Assembly (NCBI RefSeq): GCF_017357825.1
Contig: NZ_CP046073.1
Span: 1 to 64,000, forward strand
From: Sulfurimonas aquatica
GTDB taxonomy: Bacteria > Campylobacterota > Campylobacteria > Campylobacterales > Sulfurimonadaceae
DNA: 64,000 nt
Reading direction: 5' to 3'
Shown: in pieces, positions 10,518-55,400 of the stretch
Layout of the letters: each line of letters starts with the position of its first letter
How positions within the stretch are numbered: the stretch's first letter is position 1
Notes under the pieces: model-generated
Told to the model about the DNA's origin: nothing
The model's input: only the letters and a program-made list of their open reading frames with translations
Database searches by the model: none
Position numbers and translations under genes: made by a program

Positions 10518-11213
10518 TTGAAAACTAACATTATAACATTAGCACATCAAAAGGGTGGTACTGGTAAGAGTACAATGGCATGGAATTTAGCCGTTGAGAT
10601 GGGCAAGAAGTATAAGAAATATGGATATAAGAAATTCATATTTGTAGATTTAGATAATCAAGAATCCGTTACTATGACTAATAGATTAAGAATGCAATAT
10701 GGACAAGACCCACTTGAAATCGTTCGTTTTACCGATGATGAACGTAATAAACTTGAAGATTTTATTAACTCAATTGATGATGACACTTTGGTTATTATAG
10801 ATTCAGGTGGTTACGATGCTGACTTAAACAGATTGGCAATTATAGCGAGTGACTTTGTTATAACACCTGTATCATCTGACTATATGGAAATATTTGGACT
10901 TCAAAAGTTTAAGACAATTCTTGAAGAGCTCTCAGAAATAAAAAAAGAAACAGTCAGAGTAAATGTAGTATTAAATAAAATTGATCCTAAACTAAAAGAT
11001 TTTTCAGACATAGTTGACTTTATAAATGAAATAGAACACTTTAAACTGTGCGATACAGTAATAAGGTTTAGATCTGATTACAAACACTCGATTGGTTATG
11101 GCTTTAGTGTTAGAGAACTAGATAAAAAAAGTAAGGCTAGTGAAGAAATATCAATACTAATAAAAGAAATTGAAAAAAAGGCAGGATTAAAAAATGGCAA
11201 AAAAAAGAAATAG
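10518..11213 (+). CDS. parA: ParA-family partition ATPase
   Basis: This 231-residue Walker-type partition ATPase has the deviant Walker A KGGTGKST (residues 12-19), FVDLDNQES (switch I region) and LVIIDSGGYDADLN (Walker B/switch II). It lacks an N-terminal HTH, so it is the short ParA type. It binds nucleoid DNA in the ATP state and moves ParB-parS complexes. The start is TTG at 10518, after GATAGGAG. Its 3' end overlaps parB by 20 bases, indicating coupling. Confidence 0.93.
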   Translation: MKTNIITLAHQKGGTGKSTMAWNLAVEMGKKYKKYGYKKFIFVDLDNQESVTMTNRLRMQYGQDPLEIVRFTDDERNKLEDFINSIDDDTLVIIDSGGYDADLNRLAIIASDFVITPVSSDYMEIFGLQKFKTILEELSEIKKETVRVNVVLNKIDPKLKDFSDIVDFINEIEHFKLCDTVIRFRSDYKHSIGYGFSVRELDKKSKASEEISILIKEIEKKAGLKNGKKKK

Positions 11214-12069
11214 AATAACATCCGAAATGAGTAAGACAATTGCAGAGTCGTCTCCTTTAATAAAAAAAGCTACAACTAAAGTTGTAACTGAAGATAGTAA
11301 TAATTTAATTGAAGTAGGACTGAACCTCTTAATCGACAATCCGTTTCAACCTAGAATAGATATTAATGTGCACTCATTAAATGAATTAATATCATCTATA
11401 GAACAAAATGGTCTATTACAACCAATTGTCATTACAGAGAAGAACGAAGATGGTAAACATATTATCATTGCAGGGCATAGAAGATATGAAGCATTTAAAA
11501 TTATGGGTAGAGATAGCATTAAGGCGACTACGCTAAAAGATATAGCAGATAAAGATTTAGCAATTTTGTCTTTGACAGAAAATTTAATGAGAGAAAATCT
11601 ACATCCTATTGAAAATGCGATTGCAATTAAAAATATTTTAGATAATAATATTGTTGAAAGCCAAAATAAACTTGCCGAATATGTTGGTTTGTCAAAAGGT
11701 TATGTATCGAAATTAATGAACATCTTAAAATTACCAACTTCGATAATTCAAGTAATAAAAGATGATAATTATACAGATATAAATATTCTACTATTATTAA
11801 ATAAACTTGATGATGTTGAAACCATGTTAACAGTATATAAGTATGTGAAAAACCTTACACGAAGTGAAGCAGAAAAATATATTAAGATAAATTATTTAGA
11901 GCAAAAAACACAGACAAAAGAAGTGGCAACAATTAAAACAAGTAAATCAAAGATAGCACTAGACATCAATATTAAAATGCTCAGCAGTGAAGAGAATAAA
12001 GAAGTTTTGAATAAAATTGAAAAGTTACAACATGAAATCGAAAGCTTATATGCTGTTTGGGGCAAATAG
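11194..12069 (+). CDS. parB: ParB-family partition protein
   Basis: This 291-residue ParB/Spo0J homologue has the NPFQPRIDI box near residue 50. The CTPase-type nuclease fold follows, with IVITEKNEDGKHIIIAGHRRYEAF and LTENLMRENLHPIENA. An HTH (NKLAEYVGLSKGYVSKLMNIL) comes next, then a lysine-rich linker and a C-terminal dimerisation helix. It should load at the parS-like palindrome 0.8 kb upstream. The gene overlaps parA at its start and rep at its end (TAGTG), so the three are one transcription unit. Confidence 0.93.
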   Translation: MAKKRNRITSEMSKTIAESSPLIKKATTKVVTEDSNNLIEVGLNLLIDNPFQPRIDINVHSLNELISSIEQNGLLQPIVITEKNEDGKHIIIAGHRRYEAFKIMGRDSIKATTLKDIADKDLAILSLTENLMRENLHPIENAIAIKNILDNNIVESQNKLAEYVGLSKGYVSKLMNILKLPTSIIQVIKDDNYTDINILLLLNKLDDVETMLTVYKYVKNLTRSEAEKYIKINYLEQKTQTKEVATIKTSKSKIALDINIKMLSSEENKEVLNKIEKLQHEIESLYAVWGK

Positions 12070-12932
12070 TGAAAAAGAAAACTCAACTAACATTAGAATT
12101 TGATGTTATAAGAAAATTTGAAAAAACTTTAACTACAGCTAATGAGTTACGAACAGGAATATTCGCACCTATTGATAAGATATCTGCTAATTCTAAAACA
12201 TATAAAGATTTTTTAGCAAACAGTAGAAAAAGAACAATTGAAACAAGTTGGGGTAAAACAATTATAAAAGGTAATATTTTAACTCAAACGCATAGAGATT
12301 TATTGGACTGTATTATTACAGATGCCAAAGAAGTAAAAGAGTTAGAAGGTGGAGCAATTGCTGTATACTTTTCTACGACAGAAATTTTGAAGTCTTACAG
12401 TGGAAAAAGTAATACAAATACAAAATGGTTAAAAGACAAGTTAGACGAGATTCAGAATAGTTCCATTGAGTTTAAACAAAATAATACTGATGACTATTAT
12501 AGCTTTAGTATTATTGATTCACATGCATTTAGTACAAAGCATAATTCATTTGGATTAGTTTTTACTCCAGCATATAGAAACTTTTTTGAAGAACAATTAA
12601 CAATCAATTATAAAAAAGAGTTGCCAAAGCTATTAAAAGTTAAAAGTGCTTTATTAAAATCTATTATTAGATTCTTCTGGACACATTCAGTTAGTAGTTC
12701 GATGGACATATTGATTTTATTAAAAACAGTGGGTTTCCCTTTGGAGTCAGTACGCATGAAACAAAAAGCTGTTAAAGAAATTAAGGATAATGTTTTATTA
12801 TTAGAAGAGTATGGAATTGTATTTGAACCAAAATCTAAATTAATTTACAGTAAAAATAGCTTTGAAAATTCTATTACATTTATGAGTGGAAATCCAAATA
12901 AGAAATTAATTGAGAGCAAAGATAATAAATAA
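12069..12932 (+). CDS. Plasmid replication initiator, winged-helix Rep-like
   Basis: This protein of about 287 residues has the layout of theta-plasmid initiators. An N-terminal winged-helix region contains ILTQTHRDLLDCIITDAKEV and STTEILKSYSG. A second winged-helix half (FTPAYRNFFEEQLTINY, then LLKSIIRFFWTHS) is followed by a basic tail. The family resemblance is to Rep_3/RepB-like initiators, judged by pattern only. I prefer the GTG at 12069, which overlaps the parB stop; a TTG at 12057 is possible. An iteron array begins 68 bases after its stop codon, which strongly supports the assignment. Confidence 0.78.
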   Translation: MKKKTQLTLEFDVIRKFEKTLTTANELRTGIFAPIDKISANSKTYKDFLANSRKRTIETSWGKTIIKGNILTQTHRDLLDCIITDAKEVKELEGGAIAVYFSTTEILKSYSGKSNTNTKWLKDKLDEIQNSSIEFKQNNTDDYYSFSIIDSHAFSTKHNSFGLVFTPAYRNFFEEQLTINYKKELPKLLKVKSALLKSIIRFFWTHSVSSSMDILILLKTVGFPLESVRMKQKAVKEIKDNVLLLEEYGIVFEPKSKLIYSKNSFENSITFMSGNPNKKLIESKDNK

Positions 12933-13000
12933 GATATTATCTTGTTCTCATCTATATAGAATATATCTATAATATTCTATAAATACCTACAAAAGCAATT

Positions 13001-13725
13001 AAATGACTTCGTTATTTCATTTAAATGACTTCGCAATATACTTAATTGACTACGGCGAGTAGTTAAATGACTTCGCATTTACAATTAAATGACTACGGTT
13101 ATTTATACTATTTCTATAATATGACTTCGTTTTAATGAATATATTGATATTTTCTAGATGTATAATGCATATTATATAAGCTAACTAGTAAAATTAGTGA
13201 GAATTATATGGAAATACACTATTAAATGACTTCGTTTTTATTTAAATATAGTCTCTATAATCAATTAATTAATGGCAAATATATTAATAGTAAAAATCAG
13301 TTTTTTAGTGTTAATAATTAGTATGAGAAGCTCTTATTTGTATTAAATGACTTCGTTTTTTTTTTAATATTGCGTAAAAAATAATTAAATGACTTCGTTT
13401 TATAAAGAAAAATTGGGCTTTTTTATGTAGTAATCCGCTAAATATCTTAGTATTACTTAGAAAAAGACTCACACAAGCAAAGAATAATAGTATAAAATGA
13501 CTTCGTTACATAAGAAATATATTTAGCTAGAATAGATAATCAGTGCACTTAAATGACTTCGTTTATTAAATAAAATGTATCTTTATAGAAAGCAAAAGCA
13601 CTTAAATGACTTCGTAATCTGGGAATAAGTAATTTAATAAAGACTGAAAAATGCACTTAAATGACTTCGTTTTATGTTTATGACATTTTAATATTGAAAA
13701 AATAATAGAATATAAAATGACTTCG
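13001..13725. repeat. Iteron array, probable origin of replication
   Basis: The 834 bases between rep and the next gene hold 14 copies of AAATGACTTCG, usually preceded by TT. They start at 13001, 13023, 13044 (variant), 13065, 13087 (variant), 13119, 13224, 13345, 13387, 13495, 13551, 13604, 13659 and 13715. The first five are 21-22 bp apart (two helical turns); the last five are 53-56 bp apart (about five turns). The stretches between are very A+T rich, suitable for melting. All copies point the same way. Confidence 0.88.
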
Positions 13726-22546: not shown

Positions 22547-23338
22547 ATGAGATACCTATTATTTTTACTAGCAATAAAGGCATTGGAGCTTCACGCGCAA
22601 ACTTATGTAATGAGCGCGCAAGCAAAGAGTATTGAAGCGGCGACAGATAAGGCTTCCAAGAAGGCGGTAGTAGCCATGCATGAAGAGATATTAAATAAGA
22701 TAGGCGGCTCTTGTAAGGATTACCCTGTAGAGATTAACAGTGAGGAGTATCAAGCAGACTTCATTATGTATAAAGAGCGAGTAATTACACCTAAGGGCTA
22801 TAGAGTTCAAGCGGAGTTTGATCTCTTTCCTAAGGATGAGGAGCATACAAAAAAAGTTCTCCAAAGATGTGATGAAAAGAGAGAGGAGTATTGGCAGGGA
22901 GTAAAAACTGATGAGTTTATGCAGAAGTTTAGTCTAGGAGTAGGGGTGATGGGATGGACTTCAACTTTAGGCGCGGAGTTCTATCTTGAGTATCTTCATA
23001 AAGATGATGTTTCCATTACTCTTACAGGCTCAGTGCAAGACCCTTATATTAAAGAAGATAGTGGACCAAGCGCTGTAGATTTACAGAGTATAGCGACACT
23101 TGGTTTTGAGGTGAGGTATCTCTATTTTACAGCAGGGTTTGAAAAAGTGCTCTCCTATAGCGCTCCAACGGCGATACCAGAGAGTGATGCACCGAGCAGT
23201 TCTTTACTGTATGGAGTATCTTATAGATTTGATGATTGTAAAAAACTCTGTTTGAGTGAGGTTGGATTTGTATTTAAGTACTATAACGATAAAGAGAGTG
23301 GGGCAGGAGGACTTCGTGTACGCTACAACCTCTATTAG
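22547..23338 (+). CDS. Exported beta-rich protein, probable outer-membrane component
   Basis: This 263-residue protein has a signal peptide (MRYLLFLLAIKALELHA|QT). A mixed N-terminal half (SAQAKSIEAATDKASKKAVV and a Cys pair) resembles LPP20/FlgT-like assembly domains. The second half is rich in alternating strands (LGVGVMGWTSTLGAEFYLEY, then VRYLYFTAGFEKVLSYS) and ends in VRYNLY, suggesting an outer-membrane barrel. It overlaps the caspase gene by 23 bases, so the two are translated from one mRNA. The family is not recognised. Confidence 0.75.
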   Translation: MRYLLFLLAIKALELHAQTYVMSAQAKSIEAATDKASKKAVVAMHEEILNKIGGSCKDYPVEINSEEYQADFIMYKERVITPKGYRVQAEFDLFPKDEEHTKKVLQRCDEKREEYWQGVKTDEFMQKFSLGVGVMGWTSTLGAEFYLEYLHKDDVSITLTGSVQDPYIKEDSGPSAVDLQSIATLGFEVRYLYFTAGFEKVLSYSAPTAIPESDAPSSSLLYGVSYRFDDCKKLCLSEVGFVFKYYNDKESGAGGLRVRYNLY

Positions 23339-25112
23339 ATTTCTTTTAGCGCTGCTACTATCGAGTTCGCTCTACTCGATGGAGCTCTACTGGAGTAAAG
23401 AGAGCAGACGCTATGAGACTCCAATAAGTGCGAATAAGCCTATCGAAGCTCTTCAGAGCGACTTCGCCAAACAGGTGCAAGAGTATATGAAGAGTCCAGC
23501 GCTGCTTAAAGAGAGTCTCAGCCGCGAGTTTATAAAAAAACCAATCTATCCAAAAAAGCCAAATAAACCTGTTTTGGGAAAGAGTAAGAAGGTACAAAGA
23601 AAACAGTTTGAGACTAAAGAGGAGTATAACTCAAGAAAGCAGAAGCTTCTAAAACAAAAAGAGCTTGAAGATAAAAAAGCGATAGAGCAGTATAACATTA
23701 GGCTTCAAAATTATAAAGAGAGGCTAGAGTATCTTAATGATAACTACAACAAGCAAGTTCTAGAGAGAAACGAGCGTATTAAAAAGGTCACCGCACTTCA
23801 AAGAGAAGAGCAGGCCAATATTAAAAAGCTTTTTTTAGAGAAAATGAGAAACCTACAAAGAGTCATTCCAATCTATGCTCAAAAGAGTCTTGCACGATAT
23901 CTTGGTAAACCAAAACTATCATTTATAGAGTATGACGTAGATAAAGAGATAGCGCAACTCAAGCTATACTCCCAGTATAACAACTTTTCTCAACTTGTAA
24001 ACATAGATATACAAAGGGATTCGATTTTAAAGCTCAAGGAGAATATAGAGAGTGTAGATATCTTTTATAAGTTAGAAGCCGGTGTGAAAGAGGGGAGCGA
24101 GAGTAGCATGTTTAGCAGACTAGCATTTAAATCACTTAATTTAGAGTATGACTCTAAAACCTATCTTGCTAGTATTGCTTCAGATAGTATGAAACTCTCC
24201 TACAATACAGAGATAATAGCACCGAAGGTAGCGATACTCAAAGAGGATGCAGTAGTACTCCAAGAGCTTATAGAGCAAGATGAAAAAAAAGAGGAGAGTT
24301 TATCTATAGAGAATATAGCATATAGAGTCACCCCTTTACATGGTGATGAACTCCTCAGTGAGATAAAGAGTCTCAAACCGGTAGAGGTAAATCCTAGAAA
24401 ATGGCTATTTCTCATTGCCATAGAGAAATATGCTAAAACAGACTCGGTCGCGTATGCTAAAAATAGCGCGCTTAGTTTTATAGAGGTTGCTAAAAAAGCT
24501 CTCGGGGTGCCCCAGAATCAGATTATACGACTCATCAATGAAGAGGCGACCGCGGCGAGCATAAAAGATCAACTAAGGTACCTCTCTAAGAGAGTCCCCA
24601 AAGGAGATACTATTTACTTTTACTACTCTGGTCATGGTGTGCCAGATATAAGAGAGGGAAATAGGCCTTATTTGCTGCCACAAGATAAGATGGCGCAGTA
24701 TGTCACAGAGGATAAGAAGTTGGCTCTTGAGAGTATCTATAAATCTCTTCAAAGAAGTAGGGCTTCTCGTGTGATAGCCTTCATAGATAGCTGTTTCTCA
24801 GGCTCCACTGATAATAAAACACTCTTTAGTGGAGTAGCCGCTAGTAGACTACAAGCAAGAGCACCTGAGTTAAAAAGTAAAAAGATAGTTGCACTCACCG
24901 CCGGGCGACATGATCAGTTCTCTAATATGTATAAAGAGAAAGAGCACCGCCTCTTTAGCTACTACCTTATAAAGTCTCTTATTAGAGGAGAAAAAAATAT
25001 AGCGGATATATATAACTTCGTTCGCAGCAGTGTTCGAAGTAAATCACTCCAGATGGGAGACCTTTATGAGCAAGAACCTACCTTACAAGGGAGCAGGAGG
25101 ATAGAATTATGA
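23316..25112 (+). CDS. Exported caspase-family (C14) protease
   Basis: This protein has a signal peptide (SIRFLLALLLSSSLYS), a long lysine/glutamate-rich coiled-coil region and a C-terminal caspase domain. The domain holds the histidine in YFYYSGHG (H440) and the cysteine in AFIDSCFSGS (C493), numbered from the GTG start. I chose GTG 23316 because GGAGG lies six bases upstream and the signal peptide begins there; a longer ATG frame has no ribosome binding site. Caspase-like enzymes cleave after basic or acidic residues. Placement in the cell envelope is inferred from the signal peptide. The last codons overlap the next gene by ATGA. Confidence 0.88.
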   Translation: MYATTSIRFLLALLLSSSLYSMELYWSKESRRYETPISANKPIEALQSDFAKQVQEYMKSPALLKESLSREFIKKPIYPKKPNKPVLGKSKKVQRKQFETKEEYNSRKQKLLKQKELEDKKAIEQYNIRLQNYKERLEYLNDNYNKQVLERNERIKKVTALQREEQANIKKLFLEKMRNLQRVIPIYAQKSLARYLGKPKLSFIEYDVDKEIAQLKLYSQYNNFSQLVNIDIQRDSILKLKENIESVDIFYKLEAGVKEGSESSMFSRLAFKSLNLEYDSKTYLASIASDSMKLSYNTEIIAPKVAILKEDAVVLQELIEQDEKKEESLSIENIAYRVTPLHGDELLSEIKSLKPVEVNPRKWLFLIAIEKYAKTDSVAYAKNSALSFIEVAKKALGVPQNQIIRLINEEATAASIKDQLRYLSKRVPKGDTIYFYYSGHGVPDIREGNRPYLLPQDKMAQYVTEDKKLALESIYKSLQRSRASRVIAFIDSCFSGSTDNKTLFSGVAASRLQARAPELKSKKIVALTAGRHDQFSNMYKEKEHRLFSYYLIKSLIRGEKNIADIYNFVRSSVRSKSLQMGDLYEQEPTLQGSRRIEL

Positions 25113-26122
25113 AAATGGGAGCACTCTATATAGTATGCATTTTTATTTTTAGCGCATGCTCGCAGACAAACTTAGAAGTAAAAAAGAGAAGTTTACCTGA
25201 GTGGTATGGAGCAATGAGTGTTGCAGCTGGATATCAGATAGGGTATGGATCAGGTGATACTCTTGAAAATGCAAAAACAGCAGCAAGAGCAGATCTTGCA
25301 GCACAGAGTAATATCACTGTTTCAAGTAGATTCACTTTAAATGAAATAAGCAAAAAGGAGAGCATTAACTTAAATAGTCAGAGCAGCATATATGAGAGAG
25401 TAAAAGGAGTCGAACTTAATAATGTGGAGATTCTAAAATCAAAGCTTCACAACAATAGATACTTCGTAGCGCTGCAATCTTACTTTGATACAAAACTAAA
25501 ATGGGTAGAGCAGACTATAAAAAACGAAAACTTTAGAGATGTGATGAGTGAGAATAATCCACTTTACTTTACACTATTCTCAGAGGAACTGCAAGCCTCT
25601 TTAGGGTATATACCAGACTATAGAGTGAGCATTAATAATAAAAGAGTTTATCTGCATCTTGCAGATAAAACTATTGCACTCAATGATAGCGATGTTTTAA
25701 AACTAAAGTTTGAGAAAAAGAGCCCGGTAATTGAGATGCATTTCTCTGTAGGCGATACCATCTTAAGTGGTGGAAGCTATAAGATAGATGTAGATATAAA
25801 AGAGCAGGGCTACTTCACACTACTAAGTATAGATGAGAATCATATCGTTAGCGTCGATATAGCTAATAAGAGGGTGTATGCAAATAATTCAATTACATAC
25901 CCAAATGATCGGAATCTAGAAGCAGAGATTATCAATTATGAGAGTGAGGTACTCCAGCAATATTTGGCACTGATTTGTAAAAAACAATTAAACCTCGTAG
26001 GGTTTGAGAAAACAGATATGAACTATGAGAAGAGTAGTGACGCACTATATTTTCCCTCACTGTTTTATATCATAGAAGGGTGTGAATATAGCTCAAAGAT
26101 ATTGAGGATTATAGAAGAGTAA
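25109..26122 (+). CDS. LPP20-like lipoprotein, partner of the envelope caspase
   Basis: This 337-residue lipoprotein has the lipobox FSAC (acylated C17) and an LPP20-type domain: LPEWYGAMSVAAGYQIGYGS, then TAARADLAAQSNITVSSRFT. The C-terminal half contains VIEMHFSVGDTILSGGSYKI and YFTLLSIDENHIVSV, similar to DUF4384, a domain often fused or adjacent to caspase/kinase envelope proteins. It starts inside the caspase stop codon (ATGA), so expression is coupled. It probably anchors or regulates the protease at the outer membrane. Confidence 0.85.
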   Translation: MKMGALYIVCIFIFSACSQTNLEVKKRSLPEWYGAMSVAAGYQIGYGSGDTLENAKTAARADLAAQSNITVSSRFTLNEISKKESINLNSQSSIYERVKGVELNNVEILKSKLHNNRYFVALQSYFDTKLKWVEQTIKNENFRDVMSENNPLYFTLFSEELQASLGYIPDYRVSINNKRVYLHLADKTIALNDSDVLKLKFEKKSPVIEMHFSVGDTILSGGSYKIDVDIKEQGYFTLLSIDENHIVSVDIANKRVYANNSITYPNDRNLEAEIINYESEVLQQYLALICKKQLNLVGFEKTDMNYEKSSDALYFPSLFYIIEGCEYSSKILRIIEE

Positions 26123-27403: not shown

Positions 27404-28918
27404 ATGGGTATTACATTTAATAATCAAATATTACCTAATTCATGCCAACTTATCGGGTATTCATGGTTGATAAATCATTTTAATTTAGAGTTACCTTTAA
27501 GACAATTATGCTGCATTAGCCAAAAAAGATTAGCAGGACAGTCTATTCATAAGGGTCAGTGGCTTATATATGATGCGCAGTTAATGGTTGAAGATATAGC
27601 TTACTCTCATTTAGAATTTGCATTAAAACATGAATACATTGATTTACTTATCTTAAAAAGAATATTCCAACAATATCCCTTACAAGAAATATCACAAAGC
27701 ATCGACATAAATCCAAAACGTATTTTAAGTAAAAAAATATGGTTTTTGTATGAATTTTTGTTAAATAAAAGACTCCCTCTCAAGGATCTTCCTGTTGGCA
27801 AGTATGATGATCTTCTCGACGTAAAAAAATATATTATTAGCGAAAAAATCATTAAATCTAAAAGGCATAAGATAAACAACAACTTGATTGGAACTGCTAA
27901 ATTATGTCCAATTATTAGAAAAACAGAGAAGTTACGACACTACCTAGATTCGAATTTAAATAAAAAAATATCGAATGTTTTAGGATCTGTTAGCAATTCA
28001 CTTATCAAAAGAGCGGCTAGTTTTTTATTATTGTCAGATTCCAAAGCATCGTTTGAGATAGAAGGGGAGCGACCAGCTAAAAATAGAATTGAAAGCTGGG
28101 GTAAAATTATTAATGAAGCTGGCAAAACAATTTTGAGTATAAATGAGATACAACGGCTTCATTCGATTCTTTTAGGAAATTCGAGATTTATTAAAATAGG
28201 CCTAAGAGAAGAAGAGGTCTTTTTAGGTGATAGAGATCGAGATAATTACCCCATCCCTGAATTTATTGGTGCGAATAGTAAAGATATTTTAGAATTAATG
28301 AACGACTGGATAGAACTAGAGCAAAAATTGCTTGAAGATGAAATTGATCCAATTCTACATGCGACTATTATCGCTTTTATATTTGTATATGTACATCCAC
28401 TTGAAGATGGAAATGGAAGGATACATAGGTATTTAATACATCATGTTTTAGCAAATAGAAATTTTTATCCCAAAGGGATGATTTTTCCAATCTCAACTGT
28501 CATTTTAGATAATATTAAAAGGTATCGTGACATATTAGTTCAACATACTAGCCCACTAATGAAGATGATAAATTGGGAGGCTACAGAGAATGGAAACGTT
28601 AAAATATTAAACAATACAGAGGATTTATATAGATACTTTGATGCAACTTCAAGTTGTGAATTCATTTTTGCATGCGTTGAAAAAACTATCAAAGAGACTC
28701 TACCAAATGAATTAAAATATCTAAATTCATTTGACAAAGCATACATAGAAATTAATGAAATTATCGAGATGCCGGAGAATAAATTGAAAAGTTTAATAAC
28801 ATATATTTTGCAAAATGAACACAAGCTTTCTAAAAACAAAAAAGAGAAATACTTTGATGAATTGACTGCTCATGAGATAAAAACAATAGAAGATATTGTT
28901 GTGAATAATTTCTTATAG
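27404..28918 (+). CDS. Fic-domain protein with long N-terminal domain (Fic 2)
   Basis: This 504-residue protein has catalytic motif HPLEDGNGR at residues 331-339. A class II inhibitory motif SFEIEG at 216-221 precedes the Fic core, so it can self-inhibit. The first 200 residues are an unrecognised, partly helical domain with an HTH-like stretch near 95-115 (LQEISQSIDINPKRILSKKI). A flap segment (EVFLGDRDRDNYPIPEFIGA) follows the inhibitory helix. The start ATG 27404 follows AGAAAGGCGG. No separate antitoxin gene is adjacent. Upstream it has four phased repeats, suggesting tight autorepression. Confidence 0.9.
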   Translation: MGITFNNQILPNSCQLIGYSWLINHFNLELPLRQLCCISQKRLAGQSIHKGQWLIYDAQLMVEDIAYSHLEFALKHEYIDLLILKRIFQQYPLQEISQSIDINPKRILSKKIWFLYEFLLNKRLPLKDLPVGKYDDLLDVKKYIISEKIIKSKRHKINNNLIGTAKLCPIIRKTEKLRHYLDSNLNKKISNVLGSVSNSLIKRAASFLLLSDSKASFEIEGERPAKNRIESWGKIINEAGKTILSINEIQRLHSILLGNSRFIKIGLREEEVFLGDRDRDNYPIPEFIGANSKDILELMNDWIELEQKLLEDEIDPILHATIIAFIFVYVHPLEDGNGRIHRYLIHHVLANRNFYPKGMIFPISTVILDNIKRYRDILVQHTSPLMKMINWEATENGNVKILNNTEDLYRYFDATSSCEFIFACVEKTIKETLPNELKYLNSFDKAYIEINEIIEMPENKLKSLITYILQNEHKLSKNKKEKYFDELTAHEIKTIEDIVVNNFL

Positions 28919-29701: not shown

Positions 29702-30310
29702 CTACTGTAAAGTTCTAATTTTGTCTACAAAAGTCATCCCAATTCCATTAAAAAAGTTTATTAATTCCCCATCTAAATACAATAAATATCCGTAAATTAT
29801 TACTGAATACAATATCAATTCGACTATAAAATTCAATGAAATTACCTCCCTGAATGCATTTTTTATATCTGTTTTTGAAGGTTTCGAGGCTATGAATAGT
29901 TGAATAAATATGAAAAATACAATGAGGTCTTGGTGCTTATATTCGTATGTGTTGTGTATTGAAAAATTTAAAATATTTACATATTCTATAGATACGTACT
30001 GAAGATATATTGCAGTAAAAATCATTATGAGAAGTGACAAAAGTGGAGCTAGGTTTATTAAAATTGATTGTGTTGGAGAAGCATTCATATAGGTTACTGA
30101 ACCTAAGTTTCCCGTTTCATGATTGGGTATTAAATTGAAGCCAACCACTTTGACGATTGGTTTCGTTTTTATATGAATAGCTGCTCTAATCATGTTGATA
30201 ATAATGTCAAAAAACATAAAAATAATTGCTATAAAAGCATGAAGTAGTTCATGTATTATCGTTGCGGGTAGAAATAAGATTGAGTGGATGAAAAATTTAA
30301 TTTTACTCAT
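29702..30310 (-). CDS. Membrane protein with HELLH zinc-protease motif
   Basis: This 202-residue integral membrane protein carries HELLH at residues 20-24 in its first hydrophobic segment. It has three or four further spans (IFMFFDIIINMIRAAIHI, INLAPLLSLLIMIFTAIYL, LIVFFIFIQLFIA, LILYSVIIYGYLLYL). The HExxH motif within a membrane span, with a later NLAP in the next hydrophobic region, is the pattern of M50/DUF3267-like intramembrane metalloproteases. The substrate is unknown. It is not part of an evident operon and reads away from the hairpin-repeat region. Confidence 0.75.
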   Translation of the reverse strand: MSKIKFFIHSILFLPATIIHELLHAFIAIIFMFFDIIINMIRAAIHIKTKPIVKVVGFNLIPNHETGNLGSVTYMNASPTQSILINLAPLLSLLIMIFTAIYLQYVSIEYVNILNFSIHNTYEYKHQDLIVFFIFIQLFIASKPSKTDIKNAFREVISLNFIVELILYSVIIYGYLLYLDGELINFFNGIGMTFVDKIRTLQ

Positions 30311-30441
30311 TTTGTTTGGGGCTCCTAAAAGGGCATAGGTTATTTTAAAATCATAGTATAATTTTTCAACTTAGCAGGACGGTTTTTAGGAATAGGACAT
30401 ATTGTATTGGTCTATGGTCTAAAAAGAGCAAAAATATTGTG

Positions 30442-30571
30442 AAAATATGGCTTCTCTTATAGAGTTGAGAGAGATGCCAGTTTTGAAATATGAAAAAAAA
30501 CTGGCATCTCTGGGAATTCAGTTTTGGCATCTCTGGGAATTCAGTTTTGGCATCTCTGGGAATTCAGTTTT
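30442..30571 (+). repeat. Structured repeat unit 1: shared leader, 15-bp hairpin, three 23-bp tandem copies
   Basis: A 32-base leader (30442-30473) is identical to that of unit 2. It leads into a perfect 15-bp stem, AGAGATGCCAGTTTT (30470-30484) with its complement at 30497-30511, around a 12-base loop. The right arm starts a 23-bp tandem repeat containing GGCATCTCTGGGAATTCAG, present three times (30503-30525, 30526-30548, 30549-30571). A frame across both units has no recognisable product and the palindromes dominate the sequence, so I treat it as non-coding. Confidence 0.85.
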
Positions 30572-30603
30572 CACAGACGCTCTAAGGCCAAGGGAAAATA
30601 GCA

Positions 30604-30709
30604 AAAATATGGCTTCTCTTATAGAGTTGAGAGAGCCGTCAGTTTTGAAATATAAAAAAAACTGACGGCTCTGGGAAATACGGTTTTGACGGCTCTGGGA
30701 ATTCAGTTT
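30604..30709 (+). repeat. Structured repeat unit 2: same design, different stem word
   Basis: The identical 32-base leader (30604-30635) precedes a perfect 15-bp stem, AGAGCCGTCAGTTTT (30632-30646) with its complement at 30658-30672. Two tandem copies of GACGGCTCTGGGAA-type sequence follow (30664-30687 and 30688-30709). Relative to unit 1, three stem positions differ (ATGCC versus CCGTC). All three are compensated on the other arm and carried into the tandem copies. Confidence 0.85.
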
Positions 30710-31127
30710 GTTAAATTTCTAATATGTAGTAAAAATAATAACAACACGCTGTTAAATAGGCAAGAACTATGTTTAAGTAATGATAATGTATGAGTCAACA
30801 AGAAAAATGATTCTATGGCAGATATGAGCTATTTTTCAAATATTTCAGACTCCTAGCTAAAACAAACAAATTTCTGAAAAAATTGGATAGCTTAAAGCGC
30901 TTGATACTTTACTTGATAAAAATCTAAAAGCAACATTTAAATTTTATCTATGCATATAAGTTACCACTCCAGTTACGAGTATGGAAAGAACTTGGTTTAA
31001 AATGTATTAAATGATAAATATAAAAAAATGTATGCAAAAGGCTTTATATCAACCAGCGGGATAGATATTCCATTAGAAGACACTTATAATCAAAACCAAA
31101 TCTACAAACAGTTACTTGGTCTAATCA
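30710..31127. other. Decayed sequence between hairpin repeats and AbiEii remnant
   Basis: Short broken frames are present. A 36-codon frame at 31028-31138 (MYAKGFISTSGIDIPLEDTY onward) overlaps the start of the AbiEii remnant as a partner gene would. No intact gene is supported. It looks like an eroded cassette. Confidence 0.4.
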
Positions 31128-31418
31128 ATGACTGCTAGGGTAAAAGAAGCATTAGAAAAAATTTCTAACAATGAAATATTTAATGGTGAGCTCTACTTCA
31201 CTGGAGGTACTACACTTGCTTACTATTTTAATCATCGAATTTCTGATGATGTTTATATAGTATTTTCTAAAACTTTAAATTATAAGCTTATCATACCTAG
31301 TATCAGCATATTAGGAGCATCAAAAATTAAAGATGAAAATGTAGCAGCTTTGAGAATGGCTAGATTGTTTCCAGATAATTATTTTTTTAAAAGCTGTTTT
31401 ACTTGGTTACTTCAGTAG
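31128..31418 (+). pseudogene. Truncated AbiEii-type nucleotidyltransferase toxin
   Basis: This 96-residue frame has the AbiEii/DUF1814 start (LEKISNNEIFNGELYFTGGT, then TLAYYFNHRISDD). The GG-T motif is intact, but the DxD metal-binding pair is degraded (SDDVYIVFSK), and the remaining two thirds of the domain are missing. It collides with the convergent Fic-like gene at 31412. A 36-codon upstream frame overlapping its start could be the end of its partner gene. This is a dead remnant of an AbiE-like cassette; compare the intact version at 39402-40489. Confidence 0.7.
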
Positions 31419-43427: not shown

Positions 43428-43499
43428 CTTCGGATACTGGGTTCGAACCAGTGACCAAGTGATTAACAGTCACATACTCTAGCGCTGAGCTAATCCGGA
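43428..43499 (-). tRNA. tRNA-Asn-like gene (anticodon GTT), partly degenerate
   Basis: The reverse strand reads as a 72-nt cloverleaf. The acceptor is TCCGGAT, the D arm starts GCTC, the anticodon loop is CTGTTAA (anticodon GTT at 43465-43467), and the T arm is ACTGG-TTCGAAC-CCAGT. There is a mismatch in the acceptor stem (C2-A71), one at the top of the anticodon stem, and the D-loop lacks GG. No CCA is encoded. It is either a diverged plasmid-borne tRNA or a remnant of an integration target. Confidence 0.65.
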
Positions 43500-52485: not shown

Positions 52486-55400
52486 TTATGGTTGATTCTC
52501 ATCCGGTGTAAATAAATATACTGCACCGGCATCGTTTCCAGAGGCATCATCTATCGGAAAACTTGCCACCATATAATCCTCTGAAATTGAAACTGTTTGT
52601 CCAAAGAAAAGACCACTTCCAGTAACTGAAGCCATAGCCTTTCCAATCTCGGTTATGGTATTATTACTTTCTCTCTTATAAAGATATGCCATACGGGTTT
52701 CTTTTTCACTAGTATCTATTGAATTTACCCCTACTGCAATGTAATCGCCTGAAATTGAAACTGATTGTCCAAATCGATCACCAGCCTCGGCGTCTGAAGC
52801 CATGATTTTGCCAATCTCGGTTATGGTGTTGTCAGTCTCTCTCTTATAGAGATATGCCGCGCCGGAATCACTTCCACCGGTGTCTTCTAAAAATGCACCT
52901 ACTATCATATAATCTCCTGAGATTGAAACAGAGTTTCCAAAATAAGCATATGGCTGGATATCTGAAGCCTTTATCTTCTCAATCTCGGTTATAGTGTTAT
53001 CAGCCTCTCTCTTGTAGAGATATGCCGTACCGGAATGAATTCCGCGTGTATCTTCATTTCTTGCCCCTATCAGTATATAATCTCCCGAGATCGAAACTGA
53101 GTATCCGAAATAATCTAAAGCCTCTGCATCCGAAGCCATGATTTTGCCAATCTCGGTTATGGTGTTGTCAGTCTCTCTCTTATAGAGATATGCCGCGCCG
53201 GAATCACTTCCACCAGTGTCTTCTCCATATGCCCCTACCACCAAATAATCGCCTGAGATTGCGACTGATCTTCCGAAATTATCGCTAATCTCGGCATCTG
53301 AAGCCATGACCCTTCCAATTTCGGTTATAGAATTATCTATCTCTCTCTTAAGGAGATATGCCGCCCCTTCAAGATTACTACCACTATTTGGTGCCCCCAC
53401 AACCATATAGCTTTCTGAAATTGAAACTGAATCTCCGAAATGATATCTATCATAGGTTTTTGAAGCCATCATCTTTCCAATTTCGGTCATAGTATTGTCA
53501 ATCTCTCTCTTGTAGAGATATGCCGCACCAGCTCTGTCTCCACCAGTGTCTTCTTCAGATGCACCTACTATCATATAATCGCCTGAAATTGAAACTGATT
53601 GTCCAAATCGATCACCAGCCTCGGCGTCTGAAGCGATGATTTTTCTTGAATATAGATATGCAGAGTCTTCAACTTTAACATTTATGTCATAACTGGTATT
53701 TATTTCTAACGAAGATTCAAGATTAAGTGTAAGAGCATAGTTGTTATCTAGATTCGCATCACTAGGGTTCTCAAAGTCAGCTACATTCACCTGCTTTAAT
53801 AAAGTATTATTTTGAACTGTAAATTTATCTGCATCCTCTCCTGACAATGTTATATTGACTGAAGATACATCATATGAAGTTACATATCTTACTAACTCAA
53901 ACTCATGTAATAAAGCTGACTCATTCATAGTAAAAGTATTTCTAAGTGCTGGCATGTATAGTTTGTCTCCATAAAGGTCGTATATACTTGCAGCACCGGC
54001 ATTACTTCCACCGGTATCTTCCCACCAAGTTCCAACTAATGCATAATCTCCGGAAATTGATACTGAATATCCGAAATTATCATCAGACTCTGCGTCTGAA
54101 GCCATAATCTTTCCAATCTCGGTTATGGTGTTGTCTGTCTCTCTCTTATAGAGATATCCCGCACCGGAATCACTTCCGCCAGTATCTTCTCCATATGCCC
54201 CTACCACCATATAATCGCCTGAAATTGATACTGAGTATCCGAAATAATCTAAAGCCTCTGCATCCGAAGCCATCATCTTTCCAATTTCGGTTATGGTGTT
54301 GTTAGTCTCTCTCTTGTAGAGATATGCCGCACCAGCACTGCTTCCACTGGTATCTTCTTCAGACGCACCTACTACCATATAATCGCCTGAAATTGCAACT
54401 GATTGTCCGAATAGATCACCAGCCTCGGCATCTGAAGCCATGATCTTGCCAATCTCTATTATAGTGTCATTGGCCTCTCTCTTATATAAATATGACGCAC
54501 CTGCACTGCTTCCACTGGCATCTTCATATCTCGCCCCCACTACCATATAATCGCCTGAAATTGCAACTGATTGTCCGAATAGATCACCAGCCTCGGCATC
54601 TGAAGCCATGATTTTGCCAATCTCTGTTATGGTGTTGTCAGTCTCTCTCTTGTAGAGATATGCCGCACCAGCTCTGTCTCCACCAGTGTCTTCTCCAGAT
54701 GCACCTACTATCATATAATCTCCAGAGATTGAAACTGAGTCTCCCAAATTATCGCTAGCCTCGGCATCTGAAGCCATGATCTTGCCAATCTCTGTTATAG
54801 TGTCATTGGCCTCTCTCTTATACAAATATGACGCACCAGCACTGCTTCCACTTGTATCTTCATATCTCGCCCCTACCACCATATAATCCCCTGAAATTGA
54901 TACTGAGTATCCGAAATAATCTAAAGCCTCTGCATCCGAAGCCATCATCTTTCCAATTTCGGTTATGGTGTTGTTAGTCTCTCTCTTGTAGAGATATGCC
55001 GCACCAGCTCTGTCTCCACCAGTATCTTCTCCATATGTACCTACTATCATATAGTCTCCGGAGATTGCGACTGATCCTCCAAAACTATCGCCAGCCTCGG
55101 TATCTGAGGCTATGATCTTTTTTATTTCCAATGGAATTGATTTTTTTATGCCTAACGTAACTCTTTGGGTAGCAATATTTCCGGCTGCATCATTTGCTGT
55201 TACTTCTATATTAAAACTTGAACTTACATCTGTTGTGAAATCTACTAGAAAAATATTTCCAGAGAGTAAGTCTATGTTAAAACTGTTACTGTTTACTCCT
55301 GAGAGAGTGTAAAATAATGTTGAAATATCAGTTGCTTGAGCACTATAAACTAACAAAGAGTTTTCCGATATGCTTCCATTAAAATCTAAAGAGGCTATGT

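What the first reader, a model, noticed from the sequence alone, without database searches (positions are those of the whole stretch)
30442..30709. Two hairpin-tandem units with compensatory stem changes copied into downstream repeats
Both units share an identical 32-base leader and a 15-bp perfect stem, but the stem word is ATGCC in one and CCGTC in the other. Each change is matched on the other arm and again in every following 23-24-bp tandem copy (GGCAT x3, GACGG x2). Random drift would not keep three compensated changes and propagate them. This implies selection for a folded RNA or single-stranded DNA, or a copying mechanism that writes the same word repeatedly. I do not recognise the element.
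Basis: seen in the sequence. Interest (0 to 1): 0.82.

Follow-up and report, generated by a model that had tools for sequence, protein, structure and literature searches.

The report
Plasmid hairpin pair with matched repeats
Two neighbouring DNA hairpins on a bacterial plasmid differ in a five-letter word, and each word is repeated faithfully on both hairpin arms and in every following short repeat; the likeliest cause is copying errors during DNA replication that use the hairpin as a template, although a working RNA cannot be ruled out.

Summary
Two tandem units (30442-30571, 30604-30709) differ at 3 of their first 50 bases. Each has a perfect 15-bp stem and carries its own word in every copy: ATGCC with GGCAT three times, or CCGTC with GACGG twice; the first of these copies is the 3' stem arm. 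The three changed stem pairs are all compensated. Independent drift is excluded.

The window belongs to an 81,892-bp contig, read as a plasmid, rich in transposases and toxin-antitoxin genes. The unit occurs twice in this genome. No convincing relative was found in genus (135 genomes) and phylum (397) samples, or in the viral, phage, plasmid and genome collections searched. No Rfam family matches; no RVT_1 reverse transcriptase was found in the genome.

Agreement is complete over the 10 bases complementary to the 5' arm, but the spacers of unit 2's two repeats differ. Pairing therefore explains the agreement better than whole-repeat homogenisation, though unit 1's repeats are identical throughout. 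Hairpin-templated template switching, which is published, predicts this; so does selection on a folded RNA. Two copies cannot separate them. I favour the mutational explanation (0.5) over a selected RNA (0.27).

The parts
30402..30441 (+). left flank of unit 1; imperfectly complementary to the right flank (outer inverted repeat, includes TGTGAAAA / TTTTCACA)
   Evidence: duplex energy of the flanks against mononucleotide shuffles: 9 of 2000 as good with 12-nt flanks, 1 of 2000 with 20 nt, 0 of 2000 with 30 nt, 1 of 2000 with 40 nt; 64 of 3000 random places as good with 20 nt
30442..30473 (+). unit 1 leader, 32 nt, identical to unit 2 (overlaps the first bases of the 5' arm)
30470..30484 (+). 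unit 1, 5' stem arm AGAG-ATGCC-AGTTTT
30497..30511 (+). unit 1, 3' stem arm AAAACT-GGCAT-CTCT
30502..30571 (+). unit 1 tandem array, 3.0 identical copies of 23 bp; the first copy begins inside the 3' arm
30572..30603 (+). linker between the units; also the right flank that pairs with the left flank of unit 1
30604..30635 (+). unit 2 leader, identical 32 nt
30632..30646 (+). unit 2, 5' stem arm AGAG-CCGTC-AGTTTT
30658..30672 (+). unit 2, 3' stem arm AAAACT-GACGG-CTCT
30663..30709 (+). unit 2 tandem array, two copies (24 and 23 bp) with the same word but different spacers

Best explanation
A tandem-duplicated quasi-palindrome in a stretch of a plasmid with no recognisable gene. During replication the single strand folds into the hairpin, and the 5' arm (or its nascent copy) serves as a template for the matching bases of the 3' arm and of each following repeat. 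A multibase change in one arm is therefore rewritten into its pairing partners, while the spacers can drift. Slippage between the 23-24-bp repeats sets their number (three and two). Shown: the anatomy, the concordance of the word, and that in unit 2 the agreement between repeats covers the 10 bases complementary to the 5' arm (running on for five more) but not the rest of the spacer. Inferred: template switching as the agent, slippage as the cause of the copy number, and the lack of a cellular function.
For: Perfect 15-bp stems with 12- and 11-nt loops. The 10 bases complementary to the 5' arm agree in all copies of each unit, whereas the spacers of the two neighbouring unit-2 repeats differ (GGGAAATACGGTTT against GGGAATTCAGTTT), so in unit 2 the agreement follows pairing and not the whole repeat. 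The three changes lie within four bases of an otherwise identical 50-nt stretch (142 of 19,600 random triples are as tight, 0.7%), which fits one multibase event. Unit 1 lies in a larger imperfect palindrome. The process is documented: template switching can make multibase compensatory changes (PMC8794818), and in E. coli it makes quasi-palindromes more perfect (PMC7202029). No convincing relatives were found, as expected of a local product.
Against: No clear donor for the new word is present. The nearest match to GACGGCTCT in the 304 bases before unit 2 is GACGCTCT at 30576, one deletion away; 12 of 400 shuffles have a match within one edit. Template switching explains the spread of a word but not its origin. 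Tight clustering of the changes would also be seen if the word alone were free, or selected, to vary. Unit 1's three repeats are identical throughout, so there whole-repeat homogenisation fits as well. The authors of PMC8794818 call the strongest evidence for maintenance of short stems circumstantial. The mechanism must have acted on two or three partners in a unit without leaving an intermediate. Unusually low folding energy and raised G+C are also expected of a functional RNA.
Confidence: 0.5

Rival explanations
1. A structured regulatory or small RNA under selection. The 5' arm pairs with the first copy and can swap to the other copies, so every copy must keep the same word; the word sets a specificity that differs between the two paralogous units.
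For: RNA folding z-scores of -4.66, -4.76 and, for the whole region, -5.33. The word changes while the leader, the seven following loop bases and CTCTGGGAA stay constant. Local G+C is 0.43 against 0.27-0.29 in the neighbouring stretches 30200-30399 and 30700-30899. The outer inverted repeat of unit 1 exceeds shuffles.
Against: No Rfam family. No convincing homologue. The outer closing stem of unit 2 is not convincing (36 of 2000 shuffles with 12-nt flanks, 163 with 20 nt, 164 with 30 nt, 824 with 40 nt; 488 of 3000 random places). In the simple consensus scan promoter-like sites are no more frequent than in shuffles (12 against a mean of 11.2) and no terminator-like site follows either unit. 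The minus strand is just as extreme against its shuffles (z -5.85), although the plus strand folds more stably in absolute terms (-105.3 against -78.7 kcal/mol).
Confidence: 0.27
2. A cluster of protein-binding DNA sites (an operator for the divergent ORF at 29702-30310 or for a toxin-antitoxin regulator, or a partition or resolution site). The word is the recognition sequence, present once inverted and two or three times direct; the units bind two different proteins.
For: The array lies about 130 bp upstream of the start codon of the minus-strand ORF 29702-30310, on a contig that also encodes an HTH protein beside a Fic gene, a serine resolvase and tyrosine recombinases.
Against: TGACGGCTCT occurs nowhere else on the contig with up to 1 mismatch, and TGGCATCTCT outside the array only as 9 scattered 1-mismatch matches. 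A protein site does not require a 15-bp perfect hairpin continuing into AGTTTT/AAAACT. ParB lies at 11194-12069, the Rep3-like initiator (below Pfam's cut-off) at 12057-12932 and a 22-bp repeat array at 12996-13094, far away.
Confidence: 0.15
3. A dedicated system that writes a chosen word into several places (reverse-transcriptase based, or spacer-acquisition-like).
For: Same word in all copies, different between units; precedent that defence reverse transcriptases make repetitive DNA (PMC12632851 and PMC12039810, search listing and start of abstract only).
Against: No RVT_1 match in the whole own genome, while the same search rings in 3 of 14 named control genomes. No Cas, reverse-transcriptase or relaxase domain among the 36 plasmid proteins scanned against Pfam, which is not every ORF. 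Only two units.
Confidence: 0.03
4. Assembly artefact.
For: Tandem repeats can be misassembled in principle; no reads were available; listed contamination is 4.22.
Against: The two units differ at 3 compensated positions, in loop length, spacer and copy number, which a collapse or duplication error would not create; the assembly has 2 contigs with completeness 99.99.
Confidence: 0.02

Closest known systems
Quasi-palindromes corrected by replication template switching (E. coli, PMC7202029; hairpins in RNA genes, PMC8794818)
   Same: Inverted repeat with a short loop; multibase changes matched on both arms.
   Different: Here the same word is also carried by one or two extra tandem copies of the 3' arm, and two tandem units carry different words.
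Non-coding RNAs of defence reverse transcriptases (DRT2, DRT10) and retrons
   Same: Structured sequence with repeats; unit 1 has an outer inverted repeat.
   Different: No RVT_1 reverse transcriptase found in the genome; no Rfam match.
Type III toxin-antitoxin RNA repeats (ToxI-like; features recalled)
   Same: Short tandem repeats on a plasmid rich in toxin-antitoxin genes.
   Different: Repeats are 23-24 bp rather than about 34-45 (recalled); the next gene on the same strand is only a broken AbiE pair from about 30970.
Plasmid iterons
   Same: 22-24-bp direct repeats on a plasmid.
   Different: The iteron-like array of this plasmid is elsewhere (12996-13094, beside the Rep3-like gene), and the perfect-stem scan found no hairpin there.

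Membership tests
Quasi-palindrome shaped by template switching | inverted repeat with short spacer able to fold | tested here: met
   15-bp perfect stems, loops of 12 and 11 nt; DNA fold of unit 1 with flanks z -4.10
Quasi-palindrome shaped by template switching | multibase changes matched between the arms | tested here: met
   3 of 15 pairs changed on both sides, all within 4 bases
Quasi-palindrome shaped by template switching | a local donor sequence for the new bases | tested here: inconclusive
   GACGCTCT at 30576 is one edit away; 12 of 400 shuffles do as well
Quasi-palindrome shaped by template switching | ancestral state and direction of change known from relatives | not testable with these tools
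   no convincing relative found
Known structured RNA (Rfam 15) | match above the gathering score | tested here: not met
   one match in the window, a tRNA at 43428-43499; best of 22 weak matches in 30300-30800 is E 0.15, 22 bits against a gathering score of 116.6
Retron / DRT non-coding RNA | reverse transcriptase in the genome | tested here: not met
   PF00078: 0 matches in the own genome at E up to 0.001
Type III toxin-antitoxin RNA | toxin gene directly downstream of the repeats | tested here: not met
   no ORF of 80 aa or more lies between 30710 and 31128, then comes an AbiEii fragment
Conjugative oriT | relaxase on the plasmid | tested here: inconclusive
   none among the 36 proteins scanned against Pfam; not every ORF was scanned
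Dispersed palindromic repeat (REP/REPIN, MITE) | many dispersed copies in the genome | tested here: not met
   2 places in the own genome, adjacent; the repeat 17-mer with up to 2 mismatches only inside the array
Protein-coding repeat | homologous protein or family | tested here: not met
   frame open from 30447 to 30659 but no Pfam match at E 10, no match in the own genome outside the array, and a single plasmid hit at E 6

The most novel reading that the evidence does not exclude
A plasmid-borne RNA (or single-stranded DNA) element with an exchangeable specificity word: constant leader and frame, and a five-base word that is kept in step between one 5' strand and two or three competing 3' strands, so that paralogous units stay orthogonal to each other.
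Probability: 0.12. Interest if true: 0.75.

Novelty: new variant of a known kind. Interest (0 to 1): 0.36.

Why it matters
Compensated stem changes are widely taken as the best evidence of a selected RNA fold. This compact natural case has matched changes in one 5' arm and two or three partners, and it may be explained by replication errors alone. It therefore offers a test of whether template switching can counterfeit covariation. If instead it is a selected RNA, it would be a new type of element with an exchangeable word.

Tried and rejected
Protein-coding reading: the frame from ATG 30447 is open to 30659, but no family or homologue was found. Known RNA: rejected. Retron/DRT: rejected.

Relatives by DNA: a 60-genome sample of relatives, own included (one other match, E 9.9e-4, 42 bases at 82%), 135 genus genomes, own included, 397 phylum genomes, own included (own only). 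The genus and phylum samples overlap. Of the 33 loci from other genomes returned I read eleven by eye, nine distinct places. I saw the hairpin-plus-repeats layout in none; several are plainly coding sequence. The other 22 were not read.

Relatives by covariance model: genus, 48 of 135 genomes (own included) match at E up to 0.5, best other hit 26.2 bits against 109.7 and 106.8. Phylum, two other genomes of 397 at E up to 0.005, 32.9 and 30.3 bits (E 3.6e-4 and 9.7e-4 for one genome): one runs into the start of an htpG-like gene (named by eye), one lies inside a reading frame, and neither shows the repeats.

Exact patterns: 0 in viral contigs for three patterns; in genome contigs 0 for one and 1 for another, the one being in apparent coding sequence of a Bdellovibrionia bin (read by eye). 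By blastn the plasmid collection gave 4 records, none covering more than 15% of the query, the best a 25-base exact match in Fusobacterium varium at E 0.02; the phage collection gave 4 records at E 4.

Link to the AbiE remnant: homology to AbiE loci in related genomes starts at about 30965-30980 in the main match of each of ten loci; in the two loci whose ORFs I listed the pair looks intact. I found no long match between those loci and the array, so it does not look part of that operon's conserved sequence. The ORF 29702-30310 has no Pfam match at E 1, no relative in viral contigs or plasmids, and one weak hit (E 9.8e-4) besides itself in 397 phylum genomes, so it gave no context.

Literature: three searches for such an architecture or process (15 of 108, 12 of 18 and 1 of 1 papers listed) showed no described equivalent in the listings I saw; this is not proof that none is in print.

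Full report
WHAT IS THERE. The window is positions 1-64000 of contig C2 (81,892 bp) in a two-contig genome. The contig carries ParA, ParB and a Rep3-like initiator (below Pfam's cut-off) with a 22-bp repeat array beside it, so I read it as a plasmid. The host's name is not given by the tools; I take it for a Campylobacterota bacterium, probably Sulfurimonas (my inference, untested). The contig encodes a Tn3-type transposase, a serine resolvase, tyrosine recombinases, three Fic, two HipA and two AbiEii-like proteins by Pfam or PADLOC, and by eye further transposases and toxin-antitoxin-like genes.

The finding lies between a minus-strand ORF (29702-30310) and a broken AbiE pair (from about 30970), in a stretch without a recognisable gene. 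It is two tandem units. Unit 1, 30442-30571: a 32-nt leader, a perfect 15-bp stem with a 12-nt loop, and three 23-bp repeats of which the first begins in the 3' arm. Unit 2, 30604-30709: the same leader, a 15-bp stem with an 11-nt loop, and two repeats of 24 and 23 bp. The units differ in the stem word (ATGCC or CCGTC), one loop base, one spacer, the copy number and the outer flanks.

IS IT MORE THAN CHANCE. Yes. Three of 15 stem pairs are changed on both sides, and no partner register slid by 1-3 columns gives any. That tool's own shuffle control is weak with two sequences (60 of 500). In a simple independent-substitution simulation 0 of 200,000 trials were concordant over three copies. Among the perfect stems of 11 bp or more that my scan found, 7 on the plasmid contig and 22 in 400 kb of chromosome, these two are the only ones with 10 or more bases of an arm copied within 60 nt of the stem.

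WHICH PART IS KEPT IN STEP. The 10 bases complementary to the 5' arm are identical in every copy of a unit. The spacer is not always: in unit 2 the two repeats agree for five more bases (GGGAA) and then differ, GGGAAATACGG against GGGAATTCAG, the latter identical to unit 1. If whole repeats had been homogenised after the word changed, the spacers should agree too, unless the spacer changed later. In unit 1 all three repeats are identical throughout, so that unit does not discriminate. On balance, pairing with the 5' arm is the simplest common denominator. That is what hairpin-templated correction predicts, and also what selection for alternative pairing predicts. A partial copy in the leader (TGGCTTCTCT, one mismatch from unit 1's word copy) did not follow the change in unit 2, so not every similar sequence is kept in step.

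MUTATION OR SELECTION. For mutation: the three changes fall within four bases of an otherwise identical 50-nt stretch (142 of 19,600 random triples are as tight), which suggests one multibase event, although a word that alone is free to vary would look the same. Template switching is reported to give matched multibase changes in hairpins (PMC8794818, abstract and Discussion read; PMC7202029, abstract and start of introduction read). Against: I found no clear donor for the new word, and the authors of PMC8794818 call the strongest evidence for maintenance of short stems circumstantial. For selection: strong folding, raised G+C, and the outer inverted repeat of unit 1. Against: no convincing homologue, no Rfam family, no terminator-like site after a unit and no excess of promoter-like sites, an equally extreme z-score on the other strand, although the plus strand is the more stable in absolute terms, and an unconvincing outer stem in unit 2. 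One substitution (A-U against C-G) cannot pass through a G-U intermediate, which slightly favours a one-step copying event (inference).

RELATIVES. None found that convinces. The unit is present at two adjacent places in its own genome, and I recognised none among the other genomes of a 135-genome genus sample or a 397-genome phylum sample, nor by exact patterns in viral and genome contigs or by blastn in plasmids and phages. Remote or reworded relatives could be missed: the covariance model was built from two sequences, the large searches used strict filters, and I read only eleven of 33 weak-match loci from other genomes, besides the two.

VERDICT. The inference of selection is not required. 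I give 0.5 to a tandem-duplicated quasi-palindrome rewritten by template switching and slippage, 0.27 to a selected RNA, 0.15 to protein-binding sites, 0.03 to a dedicated writing system and 0.02 to an artefact. The layout itself, a hairpin whose 3' arm is repeated in tandem with the word kept in step, I have not seen described (listings), so I rate it a new variant of a known kind, of moderate interest.

Noticed in passing
30970-31418: Truncated AbiE pair: the antitoxin-like gene lacks its first part and the AbiEii-like ORF is cut to 96 aa, whereas two related loci whose ORFs were listed hold longer pairs.
   Followed up: partly
27404-28918: Fic-domain protein that matches the PADLOC candidate defence family PDC-S24 strongly (E 2.6e-172).
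   Followed up: no
12996-13094: About 4.6 copies of a 22-bp repeat just after a Rep3-like gene: probable iterons of the plasmid origin.
   Followed up: no
52566-55119: Two arrays of 168-bp repeats (6.4 copies each) inside a 2201-aa ORF: a repetitive, possibly surface protein.
   Followed up: no
23256-26122: Caspase-like domain protein (PADLOC 'caspase', E 1.7e-17) followed by an LPP20-type lipoprotein gene.
   Followed up: no
30447-30659: Open frame through unit 1 into unit 2 (71 aa) beginning with ATG in the leader; no homologue found.
   Followed up: yes
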